Assembly: GCF_900141825.1 (NCBI RefSeq)
Contig: NZ_FQYQ01000001.1
Location: 248,001 to 312,000, forward strand
Direction of reading: 5' to 3'
DNA from: Pseudobutyrivibrio xylanivorans DSM 14809
GTDB taxonomy: Bacteria > Bacillota > Clostridia > Lachnospirales > Lachnospiraceae
DNA length: 64,000 nucleotides
The notes beneath the pieces are model-generated. The model saw only the letters and a program-made list of their open reading frames with translations. It did not search any database and had not been told where the DNA came from. This document shows, piece after piece, positions 6,713-40,278 of this stretch (its first letter is position 1; each line of letters begins with the position of its first letter). The translations under genes and the position numbers were made by a program.

Positions 6713-8437
6713 ATGAAAGAATTGATACAGGTAGAAAAATTAAATACAGATATTTTGATAATTGGCGGCGGTACAGCAGGCTGCTACGCTGCATATACAT
6801 TTGGCCAAAGCGGAAAGCACAAGGTCCTTGTGGCTGAAAAGGCAAACATTAAAAGAAGCGGATGCCTTGCTGCCGGTGTAAACGCCATAAATGCATATAT
6901 TACAGAGGGAAGAGTTCCTCAGGATTATGTGGATTATTGTAAGAAGGATGCAAAGGGAATCGTAAGAGAGGATTTGCTTTTATCCATATCTGAAAATCTA
7001 AATGAGGTAACACATAAGCTTGAAGAAAACGGGCTGGTTATCTTAAAGGATGAAAATGGTAAATATGTTACCAGAGGAAACAGAAATATAAAGATAAATG
7101 GAGAAAACATAAAGCCTATTTTAGCTAAGATGGCAGAGGCTCAGGACAATGTTTCAATCATTAATCATATTAATATTACAGATCTTTTGGTAAAGGATAA
7201 TAAGGTATTTGGAGCTGTTGGGTTTGATGTAAATAGTCAAAAGGCCTACGTGATAATAGCAAAGGCGGTGCTTATTGCAACAGGCGGAGCAGCAGGTCTT
7301 TATCGACCAAATAACCCGGGTTTTTCAAGACATAAAATGTGGTATCCACCTTTTAATACCGGAGCAGGCTATGCTATGGGAATCAATGCAGGAGCAGAGA
7401 TGACCACTCTTGAAATGAGATTTATCGCACTTCGATGCAAGGATACAATTGCTCCTACAGGAACCATAGCTCAGGGTGTGAGAGCAAAGCAGATGAATGG
7501 CAAAGGCGAAATTTATGAGACAAAGTACGGCGTTGCCACCTGCGAAAGAGTTTATGGCACTACTGAGGAAAACAGACTTGGAAATGGGCCCTGTTATCTA
7601 AAGACAGATGAGATTTCAAAGGAGCAGGAGGACGAGCTTTACAAAGCCTATCTGAACATGGCACCATCCCAGACACTAAAGTGGCTAGAGGGCGGTCAGG
7701 GACCAGCTAAACAGAATGTGGAGATAGAAGGCACAGAGCCATATATAGTAGGCGGTCACACAGCCAGTGGATTCTGGGTGGACAATAACAGAGCCACTAC
7801 CGTAAAAGGCTTGTATGCTGCTGGAGATGTGGCAGGAGGTGCCCCACAGAAATACGTAACGGGAGCTCTAGTAGAGGGAAAGCTTGCCGCACTTGGAATT
7901 GAAGAATTTTTGGCAGAAGGTCAGGAGGCATATTCTGATGATAGCTGGGAGACCATAGTTTCTCAGTATGAAAAATTCTTAAATAATGAGGAAGGAAATA
8001 TTACCATAGAGCAGCTGGAAGAGAGCATGCAAAAAATCATGGATGAGTATGCCGGTGGAATCAACAAGGCTTATCAGTTTAATGAGACAGGACTAAAGCA
8101 TGCAAAAGAAAAGATCTCTGGCTTGTTTGACGTTCTTGAGACCTTGAAGGCTTCTGATACAGATGAGTTATTACAAATCTACGAAATCAAAGAAAGATTA
8201 ACAGTGTGCCTTTCTCTTATAGAGCATTTAAAGGCCAGAAAAGAAACACGTTGGCACAGCTTTGCAGAAAACAAAAATTATCCGGACGAGGATAAGGATT
8301 TTGAGGTCTATATTAATTCAATCAAAGAGGACAACCAGATAAAAATAATAAAAAGACCACTTGTTGTAGATGATTACAAACCAGTGATTTTTGCCTTTGA
8401 TGGCAACAAACTGGTAGATGCAGGAGGTGAGGTTTAA
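6713..8437 (+). CDS. aprA: Adenylylsulfate reductase alpha-like flavoprotein (AprA-like)
   Basis: A 574-residue FAD protein of the fumarate reductase/succinate dehydrogenase/AprA superfamily. The N-terminus has the dinucleotide-binding motif DILIIGGGTAGCYAAY (residues 14-29). VEIEGTEPYIVGGHTASGFWVD and GLYAAGDVAGGAPQKYVTGAL correspond to the FAD/active-site region of AprA. It is shorter than dissimilatory AprA (around 660 residues). It lies between cysA and cysDN and overlaps the ferredoxin-like aprB start (TAATG), so it very probably reduces APS to sulfite and AMP for assimilation. This arrangement is known in some Clostridia. A fumarate-reductase activity is the main alternative and is disfavoured by context. 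Confidence 0.85.
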   Translation: MKELIQVEKLNTDILIIGGGTAGCYAAYTFGQSGKHKVLVAEKANIKRSGCLAAGVNAINAYITEGRVPQDYVDYCKKDAKGIVREDLLLSISENLNEVTHKLEENGLVILKDENGKYVTRGNRNIKINGENIKPILAKMAEAQDNVSIINHINITDLLVKDNKVFGAVGFDVNSQKAYVIIAKAVLIATGGAAGLYRPNNPGFSRHKMWYPPFNTGAGYAMGINAGAEMTTLEMRFIALRCKDTIAPTGTIAQGVRAKQMNGKGEIYETKYGVATCERVYGTTEENRLGNGPCYLKTDEISKEQEDELYKAYLNMAPSQTLKWLEGGQGPAKQNVEIEGTEPYIVGGHTASGFWVDNNRATTVKGLYAAGDVAGGAPQKYVTGALVEGKLAALGIEEFLAEGQEAYSDDSWETIVSQYEKFLNNEEGNITIEQLEESMQKIMDEYAGGINKAYQFNETGLKHAKEKISGLFDVLETLKASDTDELLQIYEIKERLTVCLSLIEHLKARKETRWHSFAENKNYPDEDKDFEVYINSIKEDNQIKIIKRPLVVDDYKPVIFAFDGNKLVDAGGEV

Positions 8438-8748
8438 TGAGTATTAGAATTAACGCCTTGTCCTGCATAGGTTGTAAAAGATGCGCAGAGGTATGTCCAG
8501 GAAATCTTATAAAGATAGTAAATAACAGAGCTGTAATCAAAAGAGAAAAGGACTGCTGGGGATGTACTTCCTGTCTAAAGGAATGCAAGACTGGTGCTAT
8601 CGAGTTTTTCCTAGGAGCTGATATAGGAGGAAAGGGTTCCATTCTTTCTGTTGAAGAAAAAGGAGATTTAAGAACCTGGATTGTAAAAAGACCCGATGGC
8701 AGCAGTGAAACAATTACCGTAAATACGAAGGAATCTAACAAATACTAG
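8437..8748 (+). CDS. aprB: AprB-like 2[4Fe-4S] ferredoxin subunit of APS reductase
   Basis: A 103-residue protein with two [4Fe-4S] binding motifs: [12 protein letters not shown] (residues 10-21) and [11 protein letters not shown] (about 44-54). The second cluster lacks the usual Pro after its last Cys. The remaining ~45 residues are a short tail, much shorter than dissimilatory AprB. Its ATG overlaps the aprA stop, so it should be made in equal amount and pass electrons to the AprA-like flavin. cysD follows after 11 bp. Confidence 0.85.
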
Positions 8749-11320: not shown

Positions 11321-11365
11321 AGAGCCAGCTATCAATTAATTTGATAGCTGGCTCTAATTATCTTT
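11321..11365 (+). terminator. Hairpin terminator after cysN
   Basis: AGAGCCAGCTATCAA (11321-11335) pairs perfectly over 15 bp with TTGATAGCTGGCTCT (11341-11355), with a 5-nt loop. The tail AATTATCTTT is only weakly T-rich. It closes the sulfate activation operon before the promoter at 11380. Confidence 0.75.
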
Positions 11366-11379
11366 AGGAACTAGAAGTA

Positions 11380-11433
11380 TTGATTTTAAAGGGCTTAGAG
11401 TCTATAATCCTATCAACCTAGTGGTTAGGTAGG
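11380..11433 (+). promoter_or_regulatory. Encapsulin/cysteine operon promoter with Rrf2-type operator
   Basis: TTGATT (11380-11385), a 17-nt spacer and TATAAT (11403-11408) form a near-consensus sigma-A promoter. CCTATCAACCTAGTGG (11409-11424) follows directly, with a further AGGTAGG to 11433. It matches the elements before sbp and metY, so the three operons are probably co-regulated. Confidence 0.7.
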
Positions 11434-11463
11434 AGAATGCAAAAAGCAAGAGGGGAGTTAGCT

Positions 11464-11880
11464 ATGGGTGAAACATTTGTAATCGAAGAGAATGCATACA
11501 ATAAATTAGCTGCACACGTAGAAAACACCTATCCAGATGAGGCATGTGGGATTCTTATTGGAAGCATTCAGGATAATCGTATATACGATATACATGAAAT
11601 AGTAAACAGAGAAAAAGATAAAAAGGAAAGCTTTTTTTCAATTAGTCCGATGGATATATATAAATTTGAGAAGGAACAAAAGGAAATCATAGGTTTTTAT
11701 CATTCTCATCCTGATAAGATGGCGATTCTATCTACATTGGATAAAGAGTATATGATGCCCTATGTTTTGAATCTTGTTTTTTCTGTTACAAAGAATGGTG
11801 TTTTTGATATGAGGGCATACAAAAAAGAAGGAATGGAGATTACAGAAGTAATCGAAAAAAGTGTACTGGTTCATATATAA
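11464..11880 (+). CDS. JAMM/MPN+ (M67) metallopeptidase, carrier-processing
   Basis: A 138-residue JAB1/MPN+ domain. The Glu of the active site is in EACGILIG (about residue 28), and the zinc ligands are in HSHPDKMAILSTLD, a HxHPx6-Sx2D pattern in which the usual Pro before Ser is Leu. Relatives (Mec+, HcyD) cut peptides or amino acids from the C-terminal GG of ThiS/MoaD-like sulfur carriers. The next gene encodes such a carrier fused by its GG to an E1, so this enzyme is the likely processor. ATG 11464 has AGGGGAG 7 nt upstream; the ATG at 11437 lies 1 nt after an AGGAG and is rejected. Confidence 0.88.
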   Translation: MGETFVIEENAYNKLAAHVENTYPDEACGILIGSIQDNRIYDIHEIVNREKDKKESFFSISPMDIYKFEKEQKEIIGFYHSHPDKMAILSTLDKEYMMPYVLNLVFSVTKNGVFDMRAYKKEGMEITEVIEKSVLVHI

Positions 11881-11898
11881 GACTTGGAGGGAAGAATA

Positions 11899-13356
11899 AT
11901 GCTAGTTTACATTTCGGCTACACTTAGAAATTTTTTTGATAAAAACGTACAGCTTGATGTAGAAGCTGACAACATAAAGGACGCATTACGGTTTCTTACC
12001 GACGAGTATCCAGATTCTAAAAAAGTATTGTTTGATGAAGAAGGAAAGCTCAGAAGCTTTGTTCAAATATATGTAGGTGATGAAAATTATAGCCATAGAG
12101 ATAATTGGAACAAAGCTATTGATGCGTCAAAAGAGGTTCTTCTTCTTCCTGCAATTGCAGGTGGAGCACCAGAGGACAGCATAATCTCAGATGCAAGAAG
12201 AAAAGAGGTCGCTTTTGATGATTCGGAGGTGGAGCGCTTCAGCAAACATTTGATGCTTCGTGAGATTGGTGTTAAAGGTCAGAAGAGAATCAAGGCGGCA
12301 AGAGTGGTTGTGGCAGGCGCTGGTGCACTTGGCTCACCAGTAATCCAGTATCTTGCGGCAGCTGGTGTGGGCACTATAAAGGTGGTGGATTTTGATGAGG
12401 TATCCCTTGAAAATCTTCAGAATCAGGTGCTTCATACAAATCGTGATTTAAAAAGACCAAAGGTGGCATCTGCCAGAGACAAGGTCAGAAATATAAATAG
12501 AAATATTAAGTTCGAGGATGAGAATGTTCAGCTTGATGCGGACAATATCGTCTCAGTGATAGATGGCTATGATTTGGTAATCGATTGTACTGATAATTAC
12601 AAAGCCAGATATCTGATAAATGATGCCTGCGTGCTTACAGGTATACCATTTGTATTTGGCGCTATTTTCCAGTTTGAAGGTCAGGTGGGAGTCTTTAATT
12701 ATAAAGGCGGTCCATGTCTGAGATGTCTGTATCCTGCTCCACCAGAGCCGGGACTTGTTCCTACCTGTTCTGAAGGAGGTTCTATAAGTCCGTTAGGTGG
12801 AATAATAGGAAGTATTCAGGCAAACGAAGCCTTAAAGCTGATAATTGGAATTGGAGAGCACTTGGATGGAAAGCTACTTGTTATAGATAGTCTGTATCTT
12901 CATTCAAGAATACTGCATGTAGATAAAAATCACGATTGCCCACTGTGTGGCTACTCACCAACAATCACTGACGTGGAGGACTTTGATTATGAAGAATTCT
13001 GCGGCTTAAAGGTGGATGAGGATGAGGAACCAATAGAAAGTGTTGAGCCAGATGAGCTGGCTAGAAGAATTGAAAATGAGGAGCAAATCACATTTGTTGA
13101 TGTAAGAGAGCCTCACGAAAGAGCAGTTCTTCGATTCCCTAATGCAGTTGTTATTCCAATTGGTCAGCTTGCAAGAAGGAAGAATGAACTAAATCCTGAT
13201 GTTGACACCATATTTATTTGTAAACAAGGCAAGCGAAGTGAGCTTGCAATCAGAACCCTTAGGGAAGCTGGCTATGAAGGACCTATGTACAATCTTAAGG
13301 GAGGATTGGATGCTATGAAAGATATTATCTTCTCCCATGAAGGTGCATGGTTATAA
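11899..13356 (+). CDS. Ubiquitin-like sulfur carrier / MoeB-ThiF E1 / rhodanese fusion
   Basis: A 485-residue three-domain protein. Residues 1-89 are a MoaD/CysO-like beta-grasp carrier ending LLLPAIAGG, the diglycine normally at a free C-terminus. It continues directly into APEDS and the E1-like adenylyltransferase (about 107-350: VVVAGAGALGSP nucleotide site, CLRCLYP and CPLCG zinc cysteines, PTCSEGG with the candidate catalytic Cys). The last ~110 residues are a rhodanese (FVDVREPHERAV, active loop ICKQGKRSE). It should accept sulfur at the rhodanese Cys, adenylate the carrier and form a thiocarboxylate, but only after the GG is freed, presumably by the JAMM peptidase 18 bp upstream. ATG 11899 follows GGAGGGA. 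Confidence 0.9.
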   Translation: MLVYISATLRNFFDKNVQLDVEADNIKDALRFLTDEYPDSKKVLFDEEGKLRSFVQIYVGDENYSHRDNWNKAIDASKEVLLLPAIAGGAPEDSIISDARRKEVAFDDSEVERFSKHLMLREIGVKGQKRIKAARVVVAGAGALGSPVIQYLAAAGVGTIKVVDFDEVSLENLQNQVLHTNRDLKRPKVASARDKVRNINRNIKFEDENVQLDADNIVSVIDGYDLVIDCTDNYKARYLINDACVLTGIPFVFGAIFQFEGQVGVFNYKGGPCLRCLYPAPPEPGLVPTCSEGGSISPLGGIIGSIQANEALKLIIGIGEHLDGKLLVIDSLYLHSRILHVDKNHDCPLCGYSPTITDVEDFDYEEFCGLKVDEDEEPIESVEPDELARRIENEEQITFVDVREPHERAVLRFPNAVVIPIGQLARRKNELNPDVDTIFICKQGKRSELAIRTLREAGYEGPMYNLKGGLDAMKDIIFSHEGAWL

Positions 13357-13413: not shown

Positions 13414-14370
13414 ATGGCAAAAGAAGTAGAAAAAACTGAAGGCATCAATGCTCTTGGTGCCCAGGCGGCCTACAATCTTGCTAACGTCACAAAAACAAAG
13501 CCTCAGTTTGGTGCTATTACACCAAAGTGGCTCACAAAGTTTTTGGAGTTCAAAGGATTGGAGACAGGTATTTACAGAGTAAACAAGGTAGTGGAAGGTG
13601 AGACACCACTTGATGTTCTCTGCAGTCAGACTAAGAAGTCAGACATCATTCCTGATGGATATGTTGAGTATGAGACTTCACCAAGAGAGTACAGATTAAA
13701 CTCTATCTCAACAATCATCAATGTAAACACAGTAATCGAGGATGTTTACAGTGCACCTTACGATCAGGTACAGGAGCAGCTTTCACTTGCAATCGAGTCT
13801 TTAAGAGAGCGTCAGGAAAGCCAGTTAATCAACAATGATGATTACGGTCTTCTTAAGAACGTTCCAGATTCTCAGAGAATCCAGACAAGAAATGGTGCTC
13901 CAACACCAGATGACCTTGATGAGCTCATCACAAAGGTATGGAAGGAGCCTTCATTCTTCCTTGCACATCCACGTGCAATTGCAGCTTTCGAAAGAGAGTG
14001 TACAAAGAGAGGTGTTCCACCTGTAACTGTAAATCTTGCTGGAGGAACATTCTTAGCATGGAGAGGTATTCCAATTATCCCAACCGACAAGCTTTTGGTT
14101 GATGGTCTTAAGAATCCTAAGTCACAGAGCGGTAAGACTAACATCTTACTAATTCGTACAGGTGAGGCAAAGCGTGGTGTAGTTGGATTATTCCAGGCTG
14201 GTCTTAAGAATGAACACTCAAGAGGCTTATCTGTTCGTTTTAGAGGAATCGATGATAAGGGTGTAGCATCATATCTCTTGTCTTTATACTGCTCAGCAGC
14301 AATTCTTGCAGATGACGCTATTGCGGTATTGGAAGATGTAGAGGTAGGTGAGTATTATGACTACGATTGA
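13414..14370 (+). CDS. Family 2A encapsulin shell protein (SrpI-like)
   Basis: A 318-residue HK97-fold shell protein of encapsulin family 2A. It closely resembles cyanobacterial SrpI: VTKTKPQFGAITPKWL near residue 26, YVEYETSPREYRLNSIST near 87, RERQESQLINNDDYGLL and GAPTPDDLDELITKVWKEPSFFLAHP around 150-180, and VGLFQAGLKNEHSRGLSVRF. Its length fits the family (about 305-320). Family 2A shells package a cysteine desulfurase and are linked to sulfur storage. The next gene, overlapping by 14 bases, is that cargo. The RBS (AAGGAGGATAAGAG) is strong, fitting the high copy number a shell needs. No insertion of a cNMP-binding domain (family 2B) is present. Confidence 0.95.
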   Translation: MAKEVEKTEGINALGAQAAYNLANVTKTKPQFGAITPKWLTKFLEFKGLETGIYRVNKVVEGETPLDVLCSQTKKSDIIPDGYVEYETSPREYRLNSISTIINVNTVIEDVYSAPYDQVQEQLSLAIESLRERQESQLINNDDYGLLKNVPDSQRIQTRNGAPTPDDLDELITKVWKEPSFFLAHPRAIAAFERECTKRGVPPVTVNLAGGTFLAWRGIPIIPTDKLLVDGLKNPKSQSGKTNILLIRTGEAKRGVVGLFQAGLKNEHSRGLSVRFRGIDDKGVASYLLSLYCSAAILADDAIAVLEDVEVGEYYDYD

Positions 14371-15985
14371 GAATCTTGCAGGGGTTCCAAGTGCAGCGGA
14401 ACTGACAGCACTTGCTAATCAATTGTTCCCTGATTTGACAGGCAGCATAGCAGAGCCTGAGGCACCAGCTACATCTTCAATAGGTGTGCAGGTCCCAGCC
14501 GCATCAGAGGTTCCAGCTGTATCTGCTCCAGAGACTTCCGGAGTTTCTTCACCAGGATTTTCATCTGTATATCAGCCAGAGATTTTACTACCTTATCAGT
14601 CTTTTGGAGGAGGACAGGACACAGCTGCACCTTTTGCACCTGTAGTTTTATCCCAGTCACAGGCTGATGAAGCTGAAAGAGCAATTGATGTGCCTACATC
14701 ACTTGGCGGTGATCAGGTGGAGAAGAAAAGTGAGGAATATATTTCTTATTCATCAAGAGATGAGTCAATCAGAATTGGTTCTAAAAATCTTGCACAGATA
14801 AGAAGTGATTTCCCTATTCTTTCAGAGCAGATAAACGGTCATCAGCTGGTATGGCTTGACAATGGTGCTACAACACAAAGACCAAAACAGGTAATCGACA
14901 GAATCTCATATTATTATCAGCATGAAAATTCAAATGTGCACAGAGGAGCACACACACTTGCAGCTCGCTCCACAGATGCATATGAGAATGCCAGAGATAT
15001 TGTAAGAGACTTTATCGGTGCCGGTTCATCTGATGAAATCGTTTTTGTCAGAGGAACCACAGAGGCTATTAATCTTGTGGCGAACGCATATGTAAAGCCA
15101 ACACTAGAGCCAGGTGATGAGATTATCGTTTCCATCTTAGAGCACCATGCAAATATTGTTCCATGGCAGCTCATTGCTCAAGAGACAGGTGCTGTACTTA
15201 AGGTCATTCCTGTTGATGAATCAGGCCAGCTGAAGCTAGATGAATATGAGAAGCTGTTTACAAAGAAGACCAAGTTTGTCTCAGTAGCTCATGTATCAAA
15301 TGTACTTGGTACAGTTACACCAGTGGCAGAGCTTATTGCCATTGCTCACAGACACGGTGTAAGAATCCTTATAGATGGAGCTCAGTCTATAGCACATATT
15401 CCAGTCAGCGTCACAGCTCTTGATGCAGATTTCTTCGTGTTCTCAGGACACAAGGTATTTGCACCTACAGGAATTGGTGTTGTATACGGAAAGAAAGAAC
15501 TTTTAGATGCTGCCAGACCATATCACGGCGGTGGCAATATGATTAAGGATGTTACTTTTGAGCGCACCATCTACAATCCAGCACCAAACAAGTTTGAGGC
15601 TGGAACAGGAAGTATTGCCGATGCAGTAGGACTTGGGGCAGCACTCACATATCTTTCTGAGATAGGAATGCCATGTGTCTACAGATGGGAGCACGAGCTT
15701 CTTCAGTATGCTATGAAGGAAATGAAAAATGTAAAGGGACTTCACTTTATTGGAACAGCCCTTAACAAAGCATCAGTTCTTTCATTTAAATTAGATGGCT
15801 ACTCAGACGAAGAGGTAGGAAACAGACTTAACAGCTATGGTATTGCAGTAAGAACAGGGCATCACTGCGCACAGCCAGTGCTTAGACATTTTGGATATGA
15901 GAGTTCAGTTCGTCCTACATTAGCACTTTATAATTCACCAGATGATATTGATACTCTTGTAAGAGTATTAAAAACATTTGCTTAA
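14357..15985 (+). CDS. Cysteine desulfurase, encapsulin cargo (SufS-type with disordered targeting tail)
   Basis: A 542-residue PLP enzyme. Residues 1 to about 145 are Ala/Pro/Ser/Thr-rich and lack predicted fold (for example PAASEVPAVSAPETSG). This is the kind of N-terminal extension that targets cargo into family 2A encapsulins. The SufS-like catalytic domain follows (DFPILSEQINGHQLVWLDNG at 151-170). Lys366 in FSGHKVF is the PLP lysine and Cys504 in RTGHHCAQP the sulfur-accepting cysteine. It converts cysteine to alanine and bound persulfide. ATG 14357 gives good RBS spacing; GTG 14348 overlaps the RBS. A housekeeping SufS would be about 400 residues without the tail. Confidence 0.93.
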   Translation: MTTIENLAGVPSAAELTALANQLFPDLTGSIAEPEAPATSSIGVQVPAASEVPAVSAPETSGVSSPGFSSVYQPEILLPYQSFGGGQDTAAPFAPVVLSQSQADEAERAIDVPTSLGGDQVEKKSEEYISYSSRDESIRIGSKNLAQIRSDFPILSEQINGHQLVWLDNGATTQRPKQVIDRISYYYQHENSNVHRGAHTLAARSTDAYENARDIVRDFIGAGSSDEIVFVRGTTEAINLVANAYVKPTLEPGDEIIVSILEHHANIVPWQLIAQETGAVLKVIPVDESGQLKLDEYEKLFTKKTKFVSVAHVSNVLGTVTPVAELIAIAHRHGVRILIDGAQSIAHIPVSVTALDADFFVFSGHKVFAPTGIGVVYGKKELLDAARPYHGGGNMIKDVTFERTIYNPAPNKFEAGTGSIADAVGLGAALTYLSEIGMPCVYRWEHELLQYAMKEMKNVKGLHFIGTALNKASVLSFKLDGYSDEEVGNRLNSYGIAVRTGHHCAQPVLRHFGYESSVRPTLALYNSPDDIDTLVRVLKTFA

Positions 15986-16004: not shown

Positions 16005-16967
16005 GTGAGCACACTAGTTAAAGAACAACAGGAAATAGATGTGATTGTAAAAGATATCCTTGCGGATTTTGACGGTCGAAAAAATATTGATGCTGTTGAT
16101 ATCTTTAATAAGCCGGATAAAAGGGAAGTGCAGGAATTGGTGAAAAACCTTTTCAAAATAGTTTATCCTGGCTATTTCAGAGATAAGTCATTCAAAATAT
16201 ACAATCCTAGCAATAGCTATGCTGTCATTATCGAGGATACTTTTTATCATATGAACAAGCAGGTCTTTCTGGCACTGGATTTCTGTAAAAAACGAGGCAC
16301 TATGACAGAAGATGACAGAAGAAAGGAAAGCTACAGAATCTGTAAAGCCTTTTTTGGTAGAATACCAAAGATTCGCGAATACATAGAAAGCGATTTGCTG
16401 GCTGCTTACGACGGCGACCCTGCTGCAGGTTGTTTTGAGGAAATTATTCTTGCTTATCCTGGTCTGATAGCTAGTACAGTTTATAGAATTGCCCACGAGC
16501 TTTATGTTGAGCAGGTGCCAGTATTGCCACGTATGATGACAGAGCTTGCTCATTCAAAAACTGGTATTGATATTCATCCTGGCGCCACTATTGATAAAAA
16601 TTTCTTTATAGATCACGGAACAGGTATTGTTATTGGTGAGACGGCGATTATAGGAAAAAATGTAAAGATCTATCAGGGAGTTACCATAGGAGCTCTTTCT
16701 ACCAGAGGTGGTCAAAAGCTTTCTGGAAAGAAGAGACATCCTACCATTTGTGACAATGTCACTATATATGCAGGAGCTTCCATATTAGGAGGTAATACTA
16801 TAATAGGAGAGAATGCTGTAATAGGTGGTAACACATTTATTACCAGCTCAATCAATCCTAATACTATTGTGAGCATGAAAAATTTGGAGATGGAGTATCG
16901 GACATCCGAAAATACGATAGCGACAGAAGAGTTGCATCAATCAGAGGAGTGGTATTACATCATTTAA
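16005..16967 (+). CDS. cysE: Serine O-acetyltransferase
   Basis: A 320-residue serine acetyltransferase of the longer EpsC/SrpH type. An N-terminal helical domain (about 1-190) is followed by left-handed beta-helix hexapeptide repeats: IDIHPGATIDKNFFIDHGTGIVIGET, then NVKIYQGVTIGALST and NVTIYAGASILGGNT. The catalytic His is in DHGTG. It makes O-acetylserine from serine and acetyl-CoA. Serine acetyltransferase is a regular partner of family 2A encapsulin-desulfurase clusters. The start is GTG 16005 with AAAGGGG 5-10 nt upstream. No cysteine synthase is in the window. It ends the operon before the hairpin at 16973. Confidence 0.92.
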   Translation: MSTLVKEQQEIDVIVKDILADFDGRKNIDAVDIFNKPDKREVQELVKNLFKIVYPGYFRDKSFKIYNPSNSYAVIIEDTFYHMNKQVFLALDFCKKRGTMTEDDRRKESYRICKAFFGRIPKIREYIESDLLAAYDGDPAAGCFEEIILAYPGLIASTVYRIAHELYVEQVPVLPRMMTELAHSKTGIDIHPGATIDKNFFIDHGTGIVIGETAIIGKNVKIYQGVTIGALSTRGGQKLSGKKRHPTICDNVTIYAGASILGGNTIIGENAVIGGNTFITSSINPNTIVSMKNLEMEYRTSENTIATEELHQSEEWYYII

Positions 16968-22384: not shown

Positions 22385-23611
22385 ATGAGATTTAATACTA
22401 GATTACTCCATGAAGGTGTAATAAGAGAGATAAATGGAGCAACACTTCCTCCTATATATCAAAGTAGTGCCTTTGATCAGGAAACTGCAGAGGATTTGGC
22501 AGGAATCTTTGGAAATAAAAAGATGGGGTATTGTTACACGCGAGTAGCAAATCCCACAATTACGGTCTTTGAAAATAGGATTACAAAGCTTGAAGGAGGA
22601 ATAGGATCAGTTGCCTGTTCTTCAGGAATGGCAGCTTTATCAAATGCTTTGCTGAACATTTTACAGGCTGGAGATGAAATAATCTCAAGTGCCAGTCTTT
22701 ATGGCGGAACAATTGATTTGTTCCGTGACATAGAAGCATTTGGAATAAAAACAAATTATGTGCGAAACAATGACCTAGAGCAAATAGAAGCTGCTTTCAA
22801 TGAACGTACCAAGGTGGTATTTGCAGAGACCATCGGCAATCCCTGTTTGGACGTAACAGACATCAAAAAACTTGCAGAAATCGCTCACTCACATGGAGTT
22901 CCACTTATTGTTGATAATACAACAGCTACTCCTTATTTAATAAAAGCAATTGAGCTTGGTGCCGACATAGTAGTGAATTCTTCTTCAAAATATATAAATG
23001 GAAGCAGCAATTCAATCAGCGGTGTATTAACAGACAGCGGACATTTCAAATGGACAAGGGAAAAATATCCAATACTTGGAGACTATGTAAAGTTTGGCCC
23101 TATGGCTTATATAGCAAAGATGCGTAGCGGTTTATTCAGAAATATGGGTACATGCCTGTCACCATTCAACGCATATCTGAATGTGATTGGACTGGAGACA
23201 CTTGGTCTTAGAATGGATAGACAATGCAGCAATGCCTTAGCTCTTGCAACATGGCTTGAGGAAACATATCCAGACATCACAGTAAATTACCCGGGACTAA
23301 AGTCTAGCAAATGGCATGATATAGCAGAAGGACAATTGAAGAATGGATATGGAGCGATTCTTACTATTAGAGTGGGTTCTAAAGAAAGAGCCTTCCAGAT
23401 AATGAATAAGTTGACGATTCCATATATCCTTTCAAATATAGGAGATACAAAAACACTGGTAGTTCATCCAGCTTCAACGATTTCTCTTCACAGTACTCCA
23501 CAGGAGCTGGAAGATGCAGGTGTGTACGATGATTTAATTCGTATATCCGTAGGAATCGAAGACGTTGATGATTTGATAGAAGATTTTAGAAATGCATTAA
23601 AAGGAGAATAA
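22385..23611 (+). CDS. metY: O-acetylhomoserine sulfhydrylase (MetY)
   Basis: A 408-residue Cys/Met-metabolism PLP enzyme. It starts RFNTRLLHEGVIREINGATLPPIYQSSAF. The PLP site is in VACSSGMAALSNALLN and the catalytic Lys in VVNSSSKYINGSSNSISGV. The MKSGLFRN-like segment (AKMRSGLFRNMGTCLSPFNAYL) favours O-acetylhomoserine sulfhydrylase over cystathionine gamma-synthase. It forms homocysteine from O-acetylhomoserine and a sulfur donor. The six following genes encode sulfide production and a protein-thiocarboxylate donor, as in the Wolinella MetY/HcyS system. It overlaps the next gene by one base. Confidence 0.92.
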   Translation: MRFNTRLLHEGVIREINGATLPPIYQSSAFDQETAEDLAGIFGNKKMGYCYTRVANPTITVFENRITKLEGGIGSVACSSGMAALSNALLNILQAGDEIISSASLYGGTIDLFRDIEAFGIKTNYVRNNDLEQIEAAFNERTKVVFAETIGNPCLDVTDIKKLAEIAHSHGVPLIVDNTTATPYLIKAIELGADIVVNSSSKYINGSSNSISGVLTDSGHFKWTREKYPILGDYVKFGPMAYIAKMRSGLFRNMGTCLSPFNAYLNVIGLETLGLRMDRQCSNALALATWLEETYPDITVNYPGLKSSKWHDIAEGQLKNGYGAILTIRVGSKERAFQIMNKLTIPYILSNIGDTKTLVVHPASTISLHSTPQELEDAGVYDDLIRISVGIEDVDDLIEDFRNALKGE

Positions 23612-24486
23612 TGATGGCAGAAGCAATTGATTACAAAGCTCTGAAGGCTGGCGGCTTCATGAAGCAGGTACAAAAGGGATATGGGTCCCTCAGATTACAG
23701 GTTATCGGAGGCAACCTTGATGCAAAGGCAATCAAGACTGTTGCTGAGGTAGCAGAGAAATATGGTCATGGATATGTTCATATGACATCTCGTCAGGGAA
23801 TTGAGATTCCATTTATCCATGTAAATGATCTTCAGAAGGTAAAGGATGAACTTAAGGAAGGCGGAGTTGGTACCGGTGTATGCGGACCTAGAGTACGTAC
23901 TATCACAGCTTGTCAGGGTTCAGAGATTTGTCCTAGTGGATGTATTGATACATACACTCTTGCAAAGGAACTTGACGCAAGATATTTCGGTAGAGAGCTT
24001 CCACACAAGTTTAAGTTTGGTGTAACTGGATGTCAGAACAACTGCCTTAAGGCGGAGGAAAACGATGTCGGAATTAAGGGCGGTATGACAGTTGAGTATA
24101 AAGAGGATGCATGTATTTCATGCGGTGTCTGCGTAAAGGCTTGTAGAGAAAAAGCTCTTACAATGACAGATGGCAAGGTAGAAATCGACAGAACAAAGTG
24201 TAACAACTGTGCACGATGTGTAAAGAGCTGTCCTACTGATGCATGGGAAGGCACTCCAGGATATATCGTATCCTTCGGTGGAACCTTTGGAAATAAGATT
24301 TACAAAGCCGAGGAGCTTGTCCCAATCATCCGTGATAAGGAGACACTTTTTAGAGTAACAGATGCAGCTATCGAATACTTCGAGGCTAACGCAAATCCAA
24401 GTGAACGCTTCCGCGCAACACTTCAGAGACTTGGAGATGAGGGATTAAGAGAAGTTGTAAATAAAGCATACGAAGGAGGTAACTAA
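23611..24486 (+). CDS. Siroheme [4Fe-4S] sulfite reductase with ferredoxin domain (AsrC/Fsr-like)
   Basis: A 291-residue single-subunit sulfite/nitrite reductase. The N-terminal ferrodoxin-like half-domain contains HMTSRQGIEIPFIH. The siroheme-cluster cysteines are Cys101-x5-Cys107 (ACQGSEICPSG) and Cys141-x3-Cys145 (TGCQNNCLKAE). Two further [4Fe-4S] motifs follow (CISCGVCVKACR, CNNCARCVKSCP). It reduces sulfite to sulfide with six electrons. It is far smaller than CysI (about 570) and resembles AsrC and the Wolinella cluster enzyme. Siroheme would come from the hem/sirC genes of this island. ATG 23614 is an alternative start with slightly better RBS spacing. Confidence 0.9.
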   Translation: MMAEAIDYKALKAGGFMKQVQKGYGSLRLQVIGGNLDAKAIKTVAEVAEKYGHGYVHMTSRQGIEIPFIHVNDLQKVKDELKEGGVGTGVCGPRVRTITACQGSEICPSGCIDTYTLAKELDARYFGRELPHKFKFGVTGCQNNCLKAEENDVGIKGGMTVEYKEDACISCGVCVKACREKALTMTDGKVEIDRTKCNNCARCVKSCPTDAWEGTPGYIVSFGGTFGNKIYKAEELVPIIRDKETLFRVTDAAIEYFEANANPSERFRATLQRLGDEGLREVVNKAYEGGN

Positions 24487-24487
24487 A

Positions 24488-24736
24488 ATGGCAGATGTAA
24501 TTGAATTTGATGAGAAGATTGATATCACTGATAAGGTTTGCCCTTTGACTTTTGTAACTGCAAAAGTTGCAATCGAAGAGCTTGATGATGGTGAGGTTTT
24601 GGCAATTCGCCTTAATGATGGTGAGCCAGTACAGAACGTACCTCGTTCATTTAAAGAGGATGGCCATCAGGTACTTAAGCTTGATGACAATGGCGATGGC
24701 ACATATACACTTTATGTGAGAAAGGTAGAGGAATAA
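24488..24736 (+). CDS. tusA: TusA-family sulfur carrier
   Basis: An 82-residue TusA/SirA-like protein. The conserved sulfur-binding Cys lies in TDKVCPLTFVTAKVAIEEL (CPxTxxxxK-type motif, near residue 18), followed by the acidic strand GEVLAIRLNDGEPVQNVPRSF. TusA proteins carry persulfide between desulfurases or reductases and acceptors. It starts 1 bp after the reductase stop and overlaps the thioredoxin gene by one base, so it is part of the sulfite-to-homocysteine relay. Confidence 0.9.
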   Translation: MADVIEFDEKIDITDKVCPLTFVTAKVAIEELDDGEVLAIRLNDGEPVQNVPRSFKEDGHQVLKLDDNGDGTYTLYVRKVEE

Positions 24737-25053
24737 TGGCAGAGAGAATTTACGCGGATGATTTTCAGGCAAAGGTTTTAGATAGTCCCGTTCCAGTGCT
24801 AGTAGATTTTTACGCTGATTCATGCATTGCCTGCAAAAAGCTTGCTCCTACACTTTGCGATGTGGAGGAAGATTACGAGGGCAAGGTAAGTGTATTCAAG
24901 GTAAATACAGGCTATGACACAAAGCTTGTTCAGGAATATGAGATTTTAAGTAATCCTACATTGATTTTTTTTAAGAATGGCGAAGCTGTTGATCGACAGA
25001 TTGGTGCCAAGGATTATGACGAGTTAACTGACTGGATTGATGGTCTAATTTAG
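24736..25053 (+). CDS. Thioredoxin-like protein with CIAC active site
   Basis: A 105-residue thioredoxin fold: VLVDFYADSCIACKKLAPTL near residues 21-40 and NPTLIFFKNGEAVDRQIG with the cis-Pro. The active site reads CIAC instead of CGPC, which should alter its redox potential. In this operon it may supply electrons to the sulfite reductase/TusA system or release sulfur from persulfides. That role is inferred from its tight operon position between tusA and the carrier gene. Confidence 0.9.
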   Translation: MAERIYADDFQAKVLDSPVPVLVDFYADSCIACKKLAPTLCDVEEDYEGKVSVFKVNTGYDTKLVQEYEILSNPTLIFFKNGEAVDRQIGAKDYDELTDWIDGLI

Positions 25054-25073
25054 TAGTAAAGGAGAATGGAAAA

Positions 25074-25280
25074 ATGACAATTACAGTAGCAGGAGAGAAA
25101 AAGGAATACAAGGATGGACTTACACTTCCTGAGCTTATTGAAGCAGAGAATGTAGAGACACCAGAGTATGTAACAGTATCAATTAATGATGAGTTTATTC
25201 TTACAGAGAATAAAGAGACAACAGTTTTAAATGAAGGTGATTCAGTAGAGTTCCTTTACTTCATGGGAGGTGGACAATAA
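25074..25280 (+). CDS. ThiS/HcyS-like sulfur carrier ending GGGQ
   Basis: A 68-residue beta-grasp protein of the ThiS/MoaD family (ITVAGEKKEYKDGLTLPELI). It ends FMGGGQ, so one residue (Gln) follows the glycines. Ordinary ThiS ends in GG; Wolinella HcyS carries an extra C-terminal residue that the JAMM protease HcyD must remove before thiocarboxylation. The same logic fits here, because an E1 and a JAMM gene follow immediately. It overlaps the E1 start by one base. A thiamine role is possible but no other thi gene is nearby. Confidence 0.88.
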   Translation: MTITVAGEKKEYKDGLTLPELIEAENVETPEYVTVSINDEFILTENKETTVLNEGDSVEFLYFMGGGQ

Positions 25281-26110
25281 TGGCTATGACAGATCAGCAG
25301 ATTGAACGTTATAGTCGCCACATCATCCTTAAGGAGGTAGGAGCTAAGGGACAGAAGAAGCTTCTTAATGCAAAGGTCCTTATCATTGGTGCTGGCGGAC
25401 TTGGTGCTCCAGCAGCTATGTATTTGGCAGCAGCAGGCGTTGGTACAATTGGTATCGTAGATGCGGATGAGGTTGATTTATCAAATCTTCAGCGTCAAAT
25501 AATTCATGCTACAGCGGACATTGGAAAACCTAAGGTTAAGTCTGCTAAAGAGACAATGAATGCAATGAATCCAGATGTGGAGGTAAAGACTTACCACAAG
25601 TTTGTGGATTCTACAAATATAAGAGAGATAATTCGTGAATACGATTTTGTAATTGATGGAACAGATAATTTCCCAGCTAAGTTCCTTATCAATGATGCAT
25701 GCGTAATGGAGAAGAAACCATTTTCTCACGCTGGTATCATTCGCTTCAAGGGACAGCTTATGACTTATGTTCCTGGGGAAGGACCATGCTACAGATGCGT
25801 ATTCAAAAATCCACCACCAAAGGATGCTGTGCCTACATGTAAGCAGGCTGGTGTAATCGGTGCAATGGGTGGTGTTATCGGTTCACTTCAGGCAATGGAG
25901 GCTATTAAGTACATTGTAGGAGTTGGTGAGCTTCTCACAGGAAAGCTTCTTACATATGATGCAGTAAATCAGGATTTCAGAAAGATTAAGCTTCCAGGTG
26001 ATACATGCAAGTGTCCAGTTTGTGGAGCAAATCCAACTATTACAGAGCTTATTGATTACGAGCAGGTTGTATGTGAGGAAACTGCAGGACGCTTTGAGGC
26101 AGCAAGATGA
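25280..26110 (+). CDS. E1-like carrier-activating enzyme (HcyF/MoeB/ThiF)
   Basis: A 276-residue E1-like adenylyltransferase. The N-terminal QIERYSRHIILKEVGAKGQKKL is typical. VLIIGAGGLGAPAAMYLAAAGVG is the nucleotide site, DLSNLQRQ the catalytic Arg region, CYRCVF and CKCPVCG the zinc cysteines, and VPTCKQAGVIG the candidate thiol. It adenylates and thiocarboxylates the upstream carrier. Unlike the paralogue at 11899 it lacks both the fused carrier and the rhodanese. It overlaps the JAMM gene by 4 bases. Confidence 0.92.
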   Translation: MAMTDQQIERYSRHIILKEVGAKGQKKLLNAKVLIIGAGGLGAPAAMYLAAAGVGTIGIVDADEVDLSNLQRQIIHATADIGKPKVKSAKETMNAMNPDVEVKTYHKFVDSTNIREIIREYDFVIDGTDNFPAKFLINDACVMEKKPFSHAGIIRFKGQLMTYVPGEGPCYRCVFKNPPPKDAVPTCKQAGVIGAMGGVIGSLQAMEAIKYIVGVGELLTGKLLTYDAVNQDFRKIKLPGDTCKCPVCGANPTITELIDYEQVVCEETAGRFEAAR

Positions 26111-26535
26111 TAATAAGAATTGACTACAAATTATACGATGAGCTGGCAGCCTATGCCAGAGAACATCTTCCAGAGGAGGCCTGTGGACTTATAGCAGGCA
26201 CCGAAGAGGATGGAGAAAGATTCATCAAAAAGATTTATTATTTGGAAAATATTGATCACGCAACTGATCATTTTACACTAGATCCCAAAGAACAGATGTC
26301 GGCAATAAAGGATATGCGTTCATTAGGGCTAAAGCCACTAGGAAACTGGCATTCTCATCCTGAGTCGCCATCAAGACCATCTGTTGAAGACATCAAATTG
26401 GCTTTTGATTCAAAGGCCAGCTATATGATATTATCATTAATGGCGAAGGAAGCAGTTTTTAACAGCTTTCACGTGGAAAAAGGTGAAGTGACAAAAGAAG
26501 ATTTGAGAATCATTTCAGATGAATATTATTATTAA
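26107..26535 (+). CDS. JAMM/MPN+ (M67) metallopeptidase, HcyD-like
   Basis: A 142-residue JAB1/MPN+ peptidase with a canonical motif: Glu in EEACGLIAGT (about residue 22) and HSHPESPSRPSVED for zinc binding. In the Wolinella system the equivalent enzyme trims the extra residue from the carrier and later releases homocysteine from it. The upstream carrier ends GGGQ, giving it an obvious substrate. It is the last gene of the carrier trio; hemC follows 17 bp later in the same direction. Confidence 0.9.
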   Translation: MIIRIDYKLYDELAAYAREHLPEEACGLIAGTEEDGERFIKKIYYLENIDHATDHFTLDPKEQMSAIKDMRSLGLKPLGNWHSHPESPSRPSVEDIKLAFDSKASYMILSLMAKEAVFNSFHVEKGEVTKEDLRIISDEYYY

Positions 26536-39703: not shown

Positions 39704-40278
39704 AAGCCTTCCTCACCCCAGCAGGCCCCTGCCCCACCGTGGTTTTGGAAAACAATTTCGCGAATATTATAGTTTTTCAACATGCAAGAATTTGAGCATC
39801 AGCATGTGTCTTGTTGCGGGATGAACCGTTTTTCAAAAATGTATGACTGAAGCGGACACATTGAAATAACAAATATATTTTAAAAATATTTGCAGATACT
39901 TGGGTTCATATTACATTCACTAAGAAAAATAACAAAAGCAGGTTTTGTATGTATAGTCACCGTGGCACATTCAACGTCGTGTTTCAAGTGACCACTGCTG
40001 CCGCCGTCCTAGCGGCAGCTGCCTATACATAGCAAAACCTGCTTTTTATTTTTCTAAGCTCATTCCAAAATCACCCAAGTATTCTGCAATATTCTTTAAA
40101 ATATATCTTCTTAAGTATAAGAGTGTCCGCATTCAGACAAACATTTTTGAAAACTGTACAGACCTGCAAAAGACACATGCTAATAAAGATGCGAAAACTT
40201 GCATGTATGAAAAACATAATATTCTTGCGATGTTTTCCAAAACCACGGTGGGGCAGGGACCTGCTGGGGGGAAGGCTT
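39704..40278. repeat. 575-bp imperfect palindrome between convergent genes
   Basis: The ends match inversely (AAGCCTTCC at 39704-39712, GGAAGGCTT at 40270-40278), and the similarity continues along both ~285-nt arms: CCCCACCGTGGTTTTGGAAAAC on the left recurs inverted before 40260, GCATGTGTCTT recurs inverted near 40170, CAAAAATGT near 40145, and AGCAGGTTTTG (39937-39947) with CAAAACCTGCT (40033-40043). The centre holds two further hairpins (TCAC...GTGA, GCTGCCGC...GCGGCAGC). No protein is encoded. Whether it is a mobile MITE-like element, a large structured RNA or a bidirectional terminator region is open. Confidence 0.75.

What the first reader, a model, noticed from the sequence alone, without database searches (positions are those of the whole stretch)
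11464..13356. Sulfur carrier fused through its diglycine to an E1, next to a JAMM peptidase
The carrier domain ends PAIAGG at residue 89 and runs on as APEDS into the E1. A carrier must have a free GG C-terminus to be adenylated, so the polyprotein should be inactive until cut after GG, as with ubiquitin precursors. A JAMM peptidase with HSHP...SxxD lies 18 bp upstream. This suggests proteolytic activation as a control point. The alternative is that the carrier domain never functions as a free protein.
Basis: partly seen in the sequence, partly recalled or inferred. Interest (0 to 1): 0.82.

Follow-up and report, generated by a model that had tools for sequence, protein, structure and literature searches.

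The report
Self-masked sulfur carrier with its protease
A gut bacterium makes a small ubiquitin-like sulfur carrier locked inside a larger activating enzyme, next to a metalloprotease that most likely cuts it free, which would make protein cutting a first step of this sulfur pathway.

Summary
An intact JAMM gene ends 18 nt upstream; an encapsulin-2A shell, its desulfurase cargo and CysE follow. GG is kept in 99 of 99 fused carrier-E1 frames found in the loci held, 95 distinct, while what follows it varies. A JAMM lies just upstream in 84 of 86 family loci; the other two begin at a contig edge.

Five split relatives make a free carrier that also runs 2-5 residues past GG. The window's second carrier ends GGGQ beside a second JAMM; this genome's ThiS, with no JAMM within 5 kb, ends at bare GG. 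In 75 carriers, masking goes with a JAMM within 5 kb: 13 of 14, against 8 or 9 of 61. Activation by cleavage after GG is well supported but not shown. JAMM may also release cysteine, as Mec does. A control point is untested. Parallels: fused MoaX, cut after GG; archaeal pro-ubiquitin, cut by Rpn11. New variant of a known kind.

The parts
11321..11355 (+). 15-bp hairpin with T-rich tail between cysN and the JAMM gene, terminator-like
   Evidence: recognisable in same-genus loci such as L065, L067, L068
11380..11408 (+). Promoter-like site TTGATT-17-TATAAT ahead of the JAMM gene, followed by an AACC-N4-GGTT inverted repeat
   Evidence: 10 of 12 matches; promoter-like sites in the region are not in excess of shuffles, 17 against a mean of 15.9; similar in several of the 8 related upstream regions aligned
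11464..11880 (+). JAMM/MPN+ metallopeptidase (alternative ATG at 11437); proposed processing protease and cysteine-releasing hydrolase
   Evidence: PF14464 56.2 bits, PF01398 40.5 bits; metal-site residues conserved in 78 distinct neighbours
11899..12165 (+). CysO/MoaD-like sulfur carrier domain, residues 1-89, ending in G88-G89
   Evidence: NF041918 and TIGR01687 matches under their cut-offs; best solved relative 3dwg chain C, E=5e-4
12160..12168 (+). Proposed scissile junction Gly88-Gly89|Ala90
   Evidence: GG invariant in 81 of 81 distinct proteins; next residue A 62, S 10, V 7, K 2; pLDDT under 50 at residues 85-90
12241..12942 (+). MoeB/MoeZ/UbaA-type E1 adenylyltransferase domain, residues 115-348, with C273, C276, C290, C347, C350 invariant where the row is present
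   Evidence: PF00899 253.2 bits; columns, 79 of 81 rows present; Foldseek Uba4 6yub, MoeB 1jw9
13048..13317 (+). Rhodanese domain, residues 384-473, C441 in CKQGKRS
   Evidence: PF00581 50.8 bits; C441 in 78 of 78 rows present
13414..14370 (+). Family 2A encapsulin shell protein
   Evidence: NF041162 493.9 bits, cut-off 380
14348..15985 (+). SufS-like cysteine desulfurase with N-terminal extension, encapsulin-cargo type
   Evidence: NF041166 787.5 bits, cut-off 800; TIGR01979 539.6, cut-off 475.1
16005..16967 (+). Serine O-acetyltransferase (CysE/EpsC)
   Evidence: NF041874 152.4 bits, cut-off 150; TIGR01172 161.8, cut-off 210.65
25074..25280 (+). Comparator: second, free carrier (68 aa) ending FMGGGQ, one residue past GGG
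   Evidence: 55 of 58 loci searched gave such a carrier, none ending at bare GG
25280..26110 (+). Comparator: MoeB-type E1 of the second system
26107..26535 (+). Comparator: second JAMM, the only other Prok-JAB gene found in this genome

Best explanation
The gene makes a masked precursor: a CysO-like sulfur carrier whose GG tail is blocked by the very E1-rhodanese that will charge it. The adjacent JAMM cuts after Gly89 and frees both. The E1 then adenylates the free GG, and the rhodanese, perhaps loaded by the desulfurase encoded next door, supplies sulfur to form the carrier thiocarboxylate. A cysteine synthase adds this sulfur to O-acetylserine (CysE product), and the same JAMM releases cysteine from the carrier, as Mec does. 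Shown by sequence: architecture, invariant GG, intact JAMM, gene linkage, and masked carriers beside JAMMs in relatives. From established chemistry: a free C-terminus is needed for adenylation. Inferred: that this JAMM makes the cut, the sulfur source, the cysteine product and the JAMM's second role.
For: GG kept in 99 of 99 fused carrier-E1 open frames of the loci held, 95 distinct: 92 CysO-like and 3 HcyS/ThiS-like. On a FastTree tree of 79 family members made without the carrier columns, G88 and G89 change 0 times while residues 90, 92 and 93 change 12, 40 and 32 times. The linker before the E1 model varies from 4 to 28 residues in CysO-like fusions, and 85-90 is one of three stretches with pLDDT under 50. 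JAMM just upstream in 84 of 86 loci, metal-site residues conserved. Split relatives L178-L182: JAMM-carrier-E1-encapsulin order, carriers ending GG plus GFQGI, CL, RV, GSWL, RKWD (5 of 5). Second system: 55 carriers found in 58 loci, each with 1-6 residues past GGG. PF02597 sample: not bare in 13 of 14 with a JAMM within 5 kb, 8 or 9 of 61 without; Fisher p about 2e-8 or 5e-8, not corrected for relatedness. This genome's ThiS ends at bare GG. HcyS/ThiS-like fusions sit apart from CysO-like ones on the E1 tree; at least 6 changes of fused state over 75 rows. Distant fusions L169-L172 and L177 lie with cysteine synthase and JAMM, L173-L176 with JAMM. Precedents: PMC4326299 and PMC6043591 (passages or sections read).
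Against: No biochemistry exists for these proteins. Linkage of JAMM is expected from a Mec-like role alone. Mycobacterial CysO appears to end at bare GG in its structure file (query residue 89 aligns to residue 93 of 93) although that pathway has the Mec protease, so a JAMM does not imply masking. In the sample 8 or 9 of 61 carriers without a JAMM within 5 kb were not bare; five of these (G083 twice, G008, G014, G122) are in genomes with a JAMM elsewhere, but G029 (two carriers) and G130 (one) show none. L302 has a carrier ending GGC with no JAMM found in 15 kb; L305 is a fusion with no JAMM found in 13 kb although its genome has three. L168 has a fusion whose only JAMM in the genome is 3.4 kb away in the second system. 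Rpn11 was blocked by Glu just after the cut (PMC6043591, section 13); bulky residues (R, K, Q, E) do occur there in some carriers here. No cysteine synthase lies next to the window's fusion. In split relatives the extra residues overlap the E1 start codon, so overlap may have created them.
Confidence: 0.72

Rival explanations
1. The JAMM is only a Mec-type hydrolase that releases cysteine from the carrier. The fusion is cut after GG by another protease or spontaneously.
For: Mec releases cysteine from CysO-cysteine (PMC3227635, passages); cysteine synthase lies with fusion and JAMM in L169-L172, L177, L183 and L184. In fused MoaX the protease is unidentified (PMC4326299, abstract and passages). 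L305 has no JAMM found within its 13 kb.
Against: Masked tails other than fusions (1-6 residues) also go with a JAMM nearby, in a second carrier type. A hydrolase cutting GG-Cys already has the specificity needed (inference). No other protease gene was looked for in the cluster.
Confidence: 0.15
2. The carrier domain never becomes free. It is a tethered structural or regulatory domain, as proposed for ubiquitin-like domains fused to some ThiF proteins that occur with a separate ThiS.
For: Such ThiF fusions are described, with a role thought to differ from ThiS (PMC1779556, passages). The genome has two further carriers.
Against: GG and the preceding P84 are invariant while the junction after them is variable and predicted with low confidence. 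Split relatives in the same gene order make it as a free protein.
Confidence: 0.07
3. The module conjugates the carrier to proteins and the JAMM removes it, like archaeal SAMP and desampylase.
For: Weak matches to SAMP1 (50 bits, cut-off 60), the SAMP-activating E1 UbaA (303.8, cut-off 450) and desampylase (46.4, cut-off 130).
Against: None reaches its curated cut-off; the neighbours are sulfate assimilation, desulfurase and CysE genes.
Confidence: 0.06

Closest known systems
CysO-CysM-Mec-MoeZ cysteine pathway of mycobacteria
   Same: CysO-like carrier (best solved relative 3dwg_C), E1-rhodanese, JAMM; a cysteine synthase in the same cluster in relatives
   Different: Carrier fused through GG to the E1; no cysteine synthase beside it in the window; encapsulin and desulfurase added; mycobacterial CysM uses O-phosphoserine (PMC3227635, passages) whereas CysE lies here
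MoaX, fused MoaD-MoaE, cut between Gly82 and Ser83 (PMC4326299)
   Same: Carrier fused through an internal GG to its partner; cleavage after GG required
   Different: Partner is MoaE, not an E1; protease unidentified there, JAMM gene adjacent here
Caldiarchaeum pro-ubiquitin and Rpn11 (PMC6043591)
   Same: JAMM cuts after GG of a masked ubiquitin-like protein
   Different: Serves protein ubiquitination; mask is a short tail; no E1 fusion
HcyS/HcyD and QbsE/QbsD systems (recalled; the papers are not held, only a reference title was seen)
   Same: As recalled, a JAMM trims residues beyond GG of a sulfur carrier
   Different: Short tails, separate E1; the window's second system (22385-26535) resembles HcyS/HcyD as recalled
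Operon types 4a-4e of Iyer et al. 2006 (PMC1779556, passages)
   Same: ThiS/MoaD-like protein, E1 with or without rhodanese, JAB peptidase, sulfur genes; the paper also notes ubiquitin-like domains fused to ThiF, including in low-GC Gram-positives
   Different: The passages read list carrier and E1-rhodanese as separate proteins in the JAB operons; the ThiF fusions are thiamine types with a solo ThiS; no encapsulin in the passages
Family 2A encapsulin operons (PMC8346489, passages)
   Same: Shell, cysteine desulfurase cargo, serine acetyltransferase, rhodanese
   Different: The words ubiquitin, MoeB and sulfur carrier do not occur in its main text

Membership tests
CysO/Mec cysteine pathway | CysO-like carrier with C-terminal GG | tested here: inconclusive
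   GG present at the domain end but internal to the chain
CysO/Mec cysteine pathway | MoeZ-type E1 with rhodanese | tested here: inconclusive
   Domain layout met; NCBIfam MoeZ equivalog 359 bits, below its cut-off of 647
CysO/Mec cysteine pathway | Cysteine synthase in the same locus | tested here: not met
   None between 11.4 and 17 kb of the window; two cysteine-synthase-like genes elsewhere in the genome; present beside the fusion in relatives L183, L184
CysO/Mec cysteine pathway | JAMM hydrolysing carrier-cysteine | not testable with these tools
   Metal-site residues present; activity unknown
JAMM/MPN+ metalloprotease | Glu, H-x-H-x7-S-x2-D metal site | tested here: met
Family 2A encapsulin system | Shell protein over the curated cut-off | tested here: met
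   NF041162 493.9 of 380
Family 2A encapsulin system | Desulfurase cargo over the curated cut-off | tested here: inconclusive
   NF041166 787.5, cut-off 800, adjacent gene
Ubiquitin-type precursor cut after GG | Invariant GG followed by a variable extension | tested here: met
   GG in 99 of 99 frames; extension variable
Ubiquitin-type precursor cut after GG | Cleavage observed | not testable with these tools
   No experiment
SAMP/desampylase system | Members score over curated cut-offs | tested here: not met

The most novel reading that the evidence does not exclude
The operon is a sulfur bank. The encapsulated desulfurase deposits sulfane sulfur taken from cysteine; the rhodanese-E1 withdraws it onto the carrier; CysE and a cysteine synthase turn it back into cysteine. 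The JAMM gates withdrawal twice, by releasing the carrier from its polyprotein and cysteine from the carrier, and masking of GG until a JAMM acts is a general rule for JAMM-linked carriers of this kind.
Probability: 0.22. Interest if true: 0.78.

Novelty: new variant of a known kind. Interest (0 to 1): 0.6.

Why it matters
It would make polyprotein maturation by a JAMM, known from archaeal ubiquitin precursors, a standard step of sulfur assimilation in many gut bacteria, with the activating enzyme itself as the mask. It gives a sequence rule that can be tested at once (carriers that run past GG go with a JAMM), and it links family 2A encapsulins to a defined sulfur-carrier pathway.

Tried and rejected
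Frameshift or assembly artefact: rejected, 86 loci of 86 aligned have the fusion. Internal restart that would make a separate E1 from the same gene: the first in-frame start-type codons after GG are GTG at residue 111, TTG at 118 and ATG at 119; GGAG directly abuts the GTG, too close for a normal site, and an E1 made there would not free the carrier. JAMM beside the fusion by chance: the genome search found two Prok-JAB genes, both beside a carrier and an E1. Identifying the cysteine synthases as CysM or CysK by solved relatives was not decisive. Known RNA at the locus: the only Rfam match in the window is at 39.9 kb. A degenerate DNA pattern for the junction found nothing because I wrote the wrong serine codons. 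Paper search for sulfur storage in encapsulins listed only PMC8346489; one search listed six papers, none opened on that account.

Limits: one search kept 80 of 91 confirmed loci, mostly rumen Lachnospiraceae, so rows are related; the Fisher test ignores this, and 12 of the 13 masked carriers near a JAMM in the sample are of one type (FLYFMGGG). The one bare carrier counted with a JAMM (G082, 4 kb away) rests on a JAMM-like frame that showed no HxHx7SxxD motif and no Prok-JAB match. Seven genomes of that table (G001, G143, G092, G136, G076, G097, G146) were not in the genome-level JAMM search. Of the matches that reach the domain end, four were left out: the window's own second carrier (G000:C10) and the fusions G074:C8, G147:C195 and G135:C26:35317 (the first two fusions are L010 and L011, with JAMM upstream; the third is L305, without). 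G084:C6 reaches only position 74, ends VVGAG and is counted both ways. Several regions stop at contig ends, so a JAMM could be missed. In one search no carrier was found in L044, L052 and L083; for L085 and L108 a spurious ORF was listed first and the second, ending GGGR, was taken; L066 gave an odd ORF that ends GGGR. The tree is a quick one with 25 of 69 inner branches open. No genome search was made outside the window's phylum.

Full report
What is there. Window 11899-13356 encodes one 485-residue chain: an 89-residue carrier ending AIAGG, a linker that begins APEDSIISDARRKEV, a MoeB/MoeZ-type E1 (115-348) and a rhodanese (384-473). A complete JAMM gene ends 18 nt upstream. Downstream come a family 2A encapsulin shell protein (NF041162, 493.9 bits, cut-off 380), a SufS-like desulfurase of the encapsulin-cargo type (787.5 bits, cut-off 800) and a CysE. 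Upstream lie a sulfate ABC transporter, an AprA/AprB-type APS reductase and CysD/CysN (CysD, CysN and the other transporter genes named by me from their sequences). A terminator-like hairpin (11321-11355) and a promoter-like site (11380-11408) separate cysN from the JAMM gene, and parts of both recur in related loci; so JAMM, fusion, shell, desulfurase and CysE are probably one transcription unit (inference). Close relatives are Pseudobutyrivibrio: the fusion is 95% identical in L068, P. ruminis, and 97% in L065.

Conservation. A scan of named genomes gave 80 loci, kept from 91 confirmed; none of its search patterns covered the GG. With six from the family search (42 of 299 genomes matched, most of these with an ordinary MoeB only) this made 86 aligned fusions, 81 distinct. 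G88 and G89 are the same in 81 of 81; the next residue is A 62, S 10, V 7, K 2, and the linker varies in length. Six of the 89 carrier columns never vary. On a FastTree tree made without the carrier columns (79 rows), G88 and G89 change 0 times, A90 12 times, E92 40 times, D93 32 times. Over all loci held, 99 of 99 fused carrier-E1 frames keep GG; taken by the stretch around the junction they are 95 distinct, 92 CysO-like and 3 HcyS/ThiS-like. Of the 86 loci, 82 show the encapsulin gene, 85.6-100% identical to the window's; the four without (L037, L076, L083, L106) end within or just behind the fusion. The AlphaFold model (53 rows, mean pLDDT 81, pTM 0.70) has three stretches under 50: 85-90, which is the junction, 404-407 and the C-terminus 483-485. 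Its E1 part matches Uba4 and MoeB.

The protease. A JAMM frame lies just upstream of 84 of 86 fusions (within 900 nt, or overlapping); the other two, L060 and L084, start at a contig edge. The metal-site residues are conserved in 78 distinct JAMMs, although overall identity to the window JAMM is mostly 30-45%. The genome search found two Prok-JAB genes, both beside a carrier and an E1. By sequence the best solved relatives of the JAMM are 2kcq and 2kks, then BRCC36 and AMSH types, with Rpn11 types further down.

Relatives with a free carrier. Five genomes of the same order have the same cluster, JAMM-carrier-E1-rhodanese-encapsulin, with a cysteine synthase upstream in four of five, but the carrier is a separate gene (L178-L182). 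In 5 of 5 it runs past GG (GFQGI, CL, RV, GSWL, RKWD). The extra codons overlap the start of the E1 gene, so overlap may have produced them; a bare GG is still possible with an ATGA overlap (GGATGA), and a carrier with extra residues still has to be trimmed to work (inference).

A second system as comparator. At 22385-26535 the window has an OAH-sulfhydrylase-like gene, a sulfite-reductase-like gene, a free carrier ending GGGQ, a MoeB and a second JAMM. In 58 loci searched for this system, 55 gave a carrier, each with 1-6 residues past GGG; one of them (L066) is an odd frame, and 3 loci gave none. ThiS in the same genome ends at bare GGG with no JAMM found within 5 kb.

Test over a sample. PF02597 carriers from 150 genomes of the family: 75 were read with flanks. 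Of 14 with a JAMM-like frame within 5 kb, 12 are free with extra residues, 1 is fused and 1 is bare (G082, 4 kb away; that frame showed no metal-site motif and no Prok-JAB match). Of 61 without, 52 are bare, 8 have extra residues and 1 (G084) ends VVGAG. Fisher p is 2e-8 or 5e-8 depending on G084, not corrected for relatedness. Of the eight, those of G083 (2), G008, G014 and G122 are in genomes with a JAMM elsewhere (for G014 at the start of another contig); G029 (2) and G130 (1) have none detected. Outside that sample, G531 fits (carrier with 21 extra residues, JAMM in the same gene run) and G388 fits (bare, no JAMM found in its 14 kb), while G668 does not (GGC, none found in 15 kb).

More than one origin. 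Distant genomes of the phylum carry CysO-like fusions with as few as 4 residues between GG and the E1 model, with JAMM nearby and, in L169-L172 and L177, a cysteine synthase. Three HcyS/ThiS-like fusions (L138, L143, L186; L185 holds the same gene as L138) also keep GGG and have a JAMM. On the quick E1 tree these stand apart from the CysO-like ones, and the state fused or not changes at least 6 times over 75 rows.

Mechanism. A carrier needs a free C-terminal glycine to be adenylated (established for MoaD, ThiS and CysO). The uncut chain therefore cannot be charged at Gly89. The simplest reading is that the JAMM cuts after Gly89. A JAMM that releases cysteine from a GG-Cys adduct (Mec, PMC3227635, passages) already has this specificity, so one enzyme may do both. 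Rpn11 of Caldiarchaeum cuts a masked ubiquitin after GG; a Gly just after the cut speeds it and a Glu there blocks it (PMC6043591, section 13; section 6 and outline also read). The mostly small A, S and V here fit, but K here, and R, Q or E in some comparators, do not fit as well. MoaX, a carrier fused through GG to MoaE, is cut between Gly82 and Ser83 by an unidentified protease (PMC4326299, abstract and passages). What the pathway makes is inferred: CysE next door and the CysO-like carrier point to cysteine, and the desulfurase could be the sulfur source, but making cysteine from cysteine sulfur is circular unless sulfur is stored.

Against. No biochemistry; JAMM linkage is expected from the Mec role alone; CysO in its structure file appears to end at bare GG though its pathway has a JAMM, so a JAMM does not imply masking; three masked carriers sit in two genomes without a detected JAMM; one fusion, L305, has no JAMM found within 13 kb, and one, L168, has its only one 3.4 kb away in the second system.

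Novelty. The set of carrier, E1-rhodanese, JAB and sulfur genes is known (PMC1779556, passages), as are processed fusions and processed precursors. In the passages, sections and listings seen I found no carrier-E1-rhodanese chain joined through GG, no JAMM assigned to cutting one, and no link of this system to encapsulins; most subscription papers are not in the library. New variant of a known kind.

Noticed in passing
6713-8748: AprA/AprB-type (dissimilatory-style) APS reductase subunits sit in what otherwise looks like an assimilatory sulfate cluster with CysD/CysN and a sulfate ABC transporter.
   Followed up: no
11380-11436: Promoter-like site followed by an AACC-N4-GGTT inverted repeat, similar upstream of the JAMM gene in several related loci; possibly a sulfur-responsive repressor site.
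   Followed up: partly
13414-14370 and loci L083, L094, L095, L099, L101, L105, L113: The cluster appears in six Fibrobacter-labelled MAGs and one Succinivibrionaceae MAG with the fusion 61-70% identical and the shell 85-88% identical where present, which suggests horizontal spread in the rumen; mis-binning was not excluded.
   Followed up: no
L007-L115: The shell protein is about 85-99% identical to the window's in the loci that hold it, while the adjacent JAMM is mostly 30-45% identical.
   Followed up: no
L245 and L305 (genome G135): One genome carries two fusion genes (67% and 55% identical to the window's); the second has the longest linker seen (28 residues before the E1 model), encapsulin and desulfurase genes, but no JAMM found in 13 kb.
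   Followed up: partly
L302:11536-12006: Free CysO-like carrier ending in GG plus a single Cys, with no JAMM found in 15 kb; could be a fixed adduct-like tail or be trimmed by a distant JAMM.
   Followed up: no
L255, L264, L267, L278, L230: A few ThiS-like carriers end one to three residues past GGG (C, SSC, CY, Q, LSN) without a JAMM found within 5 kb.
   Followed up: partly
39909-40069 (-): Rfam match to the TwoAYGGAY RNA family (56.4 bits, gathering 43).
   Followed up: no
22385-26535: Second sulfur-carrier system (OAH sulfhydrylase-like, sulfite reductase-like, a small 82-residue protein that looks TusA/SirA-like, a thioredoxin-like protein, carrier, MoeB, JAMM), resembling the HcyS/HcyD homocysteine pathway as recalled.
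   Followed up: partly
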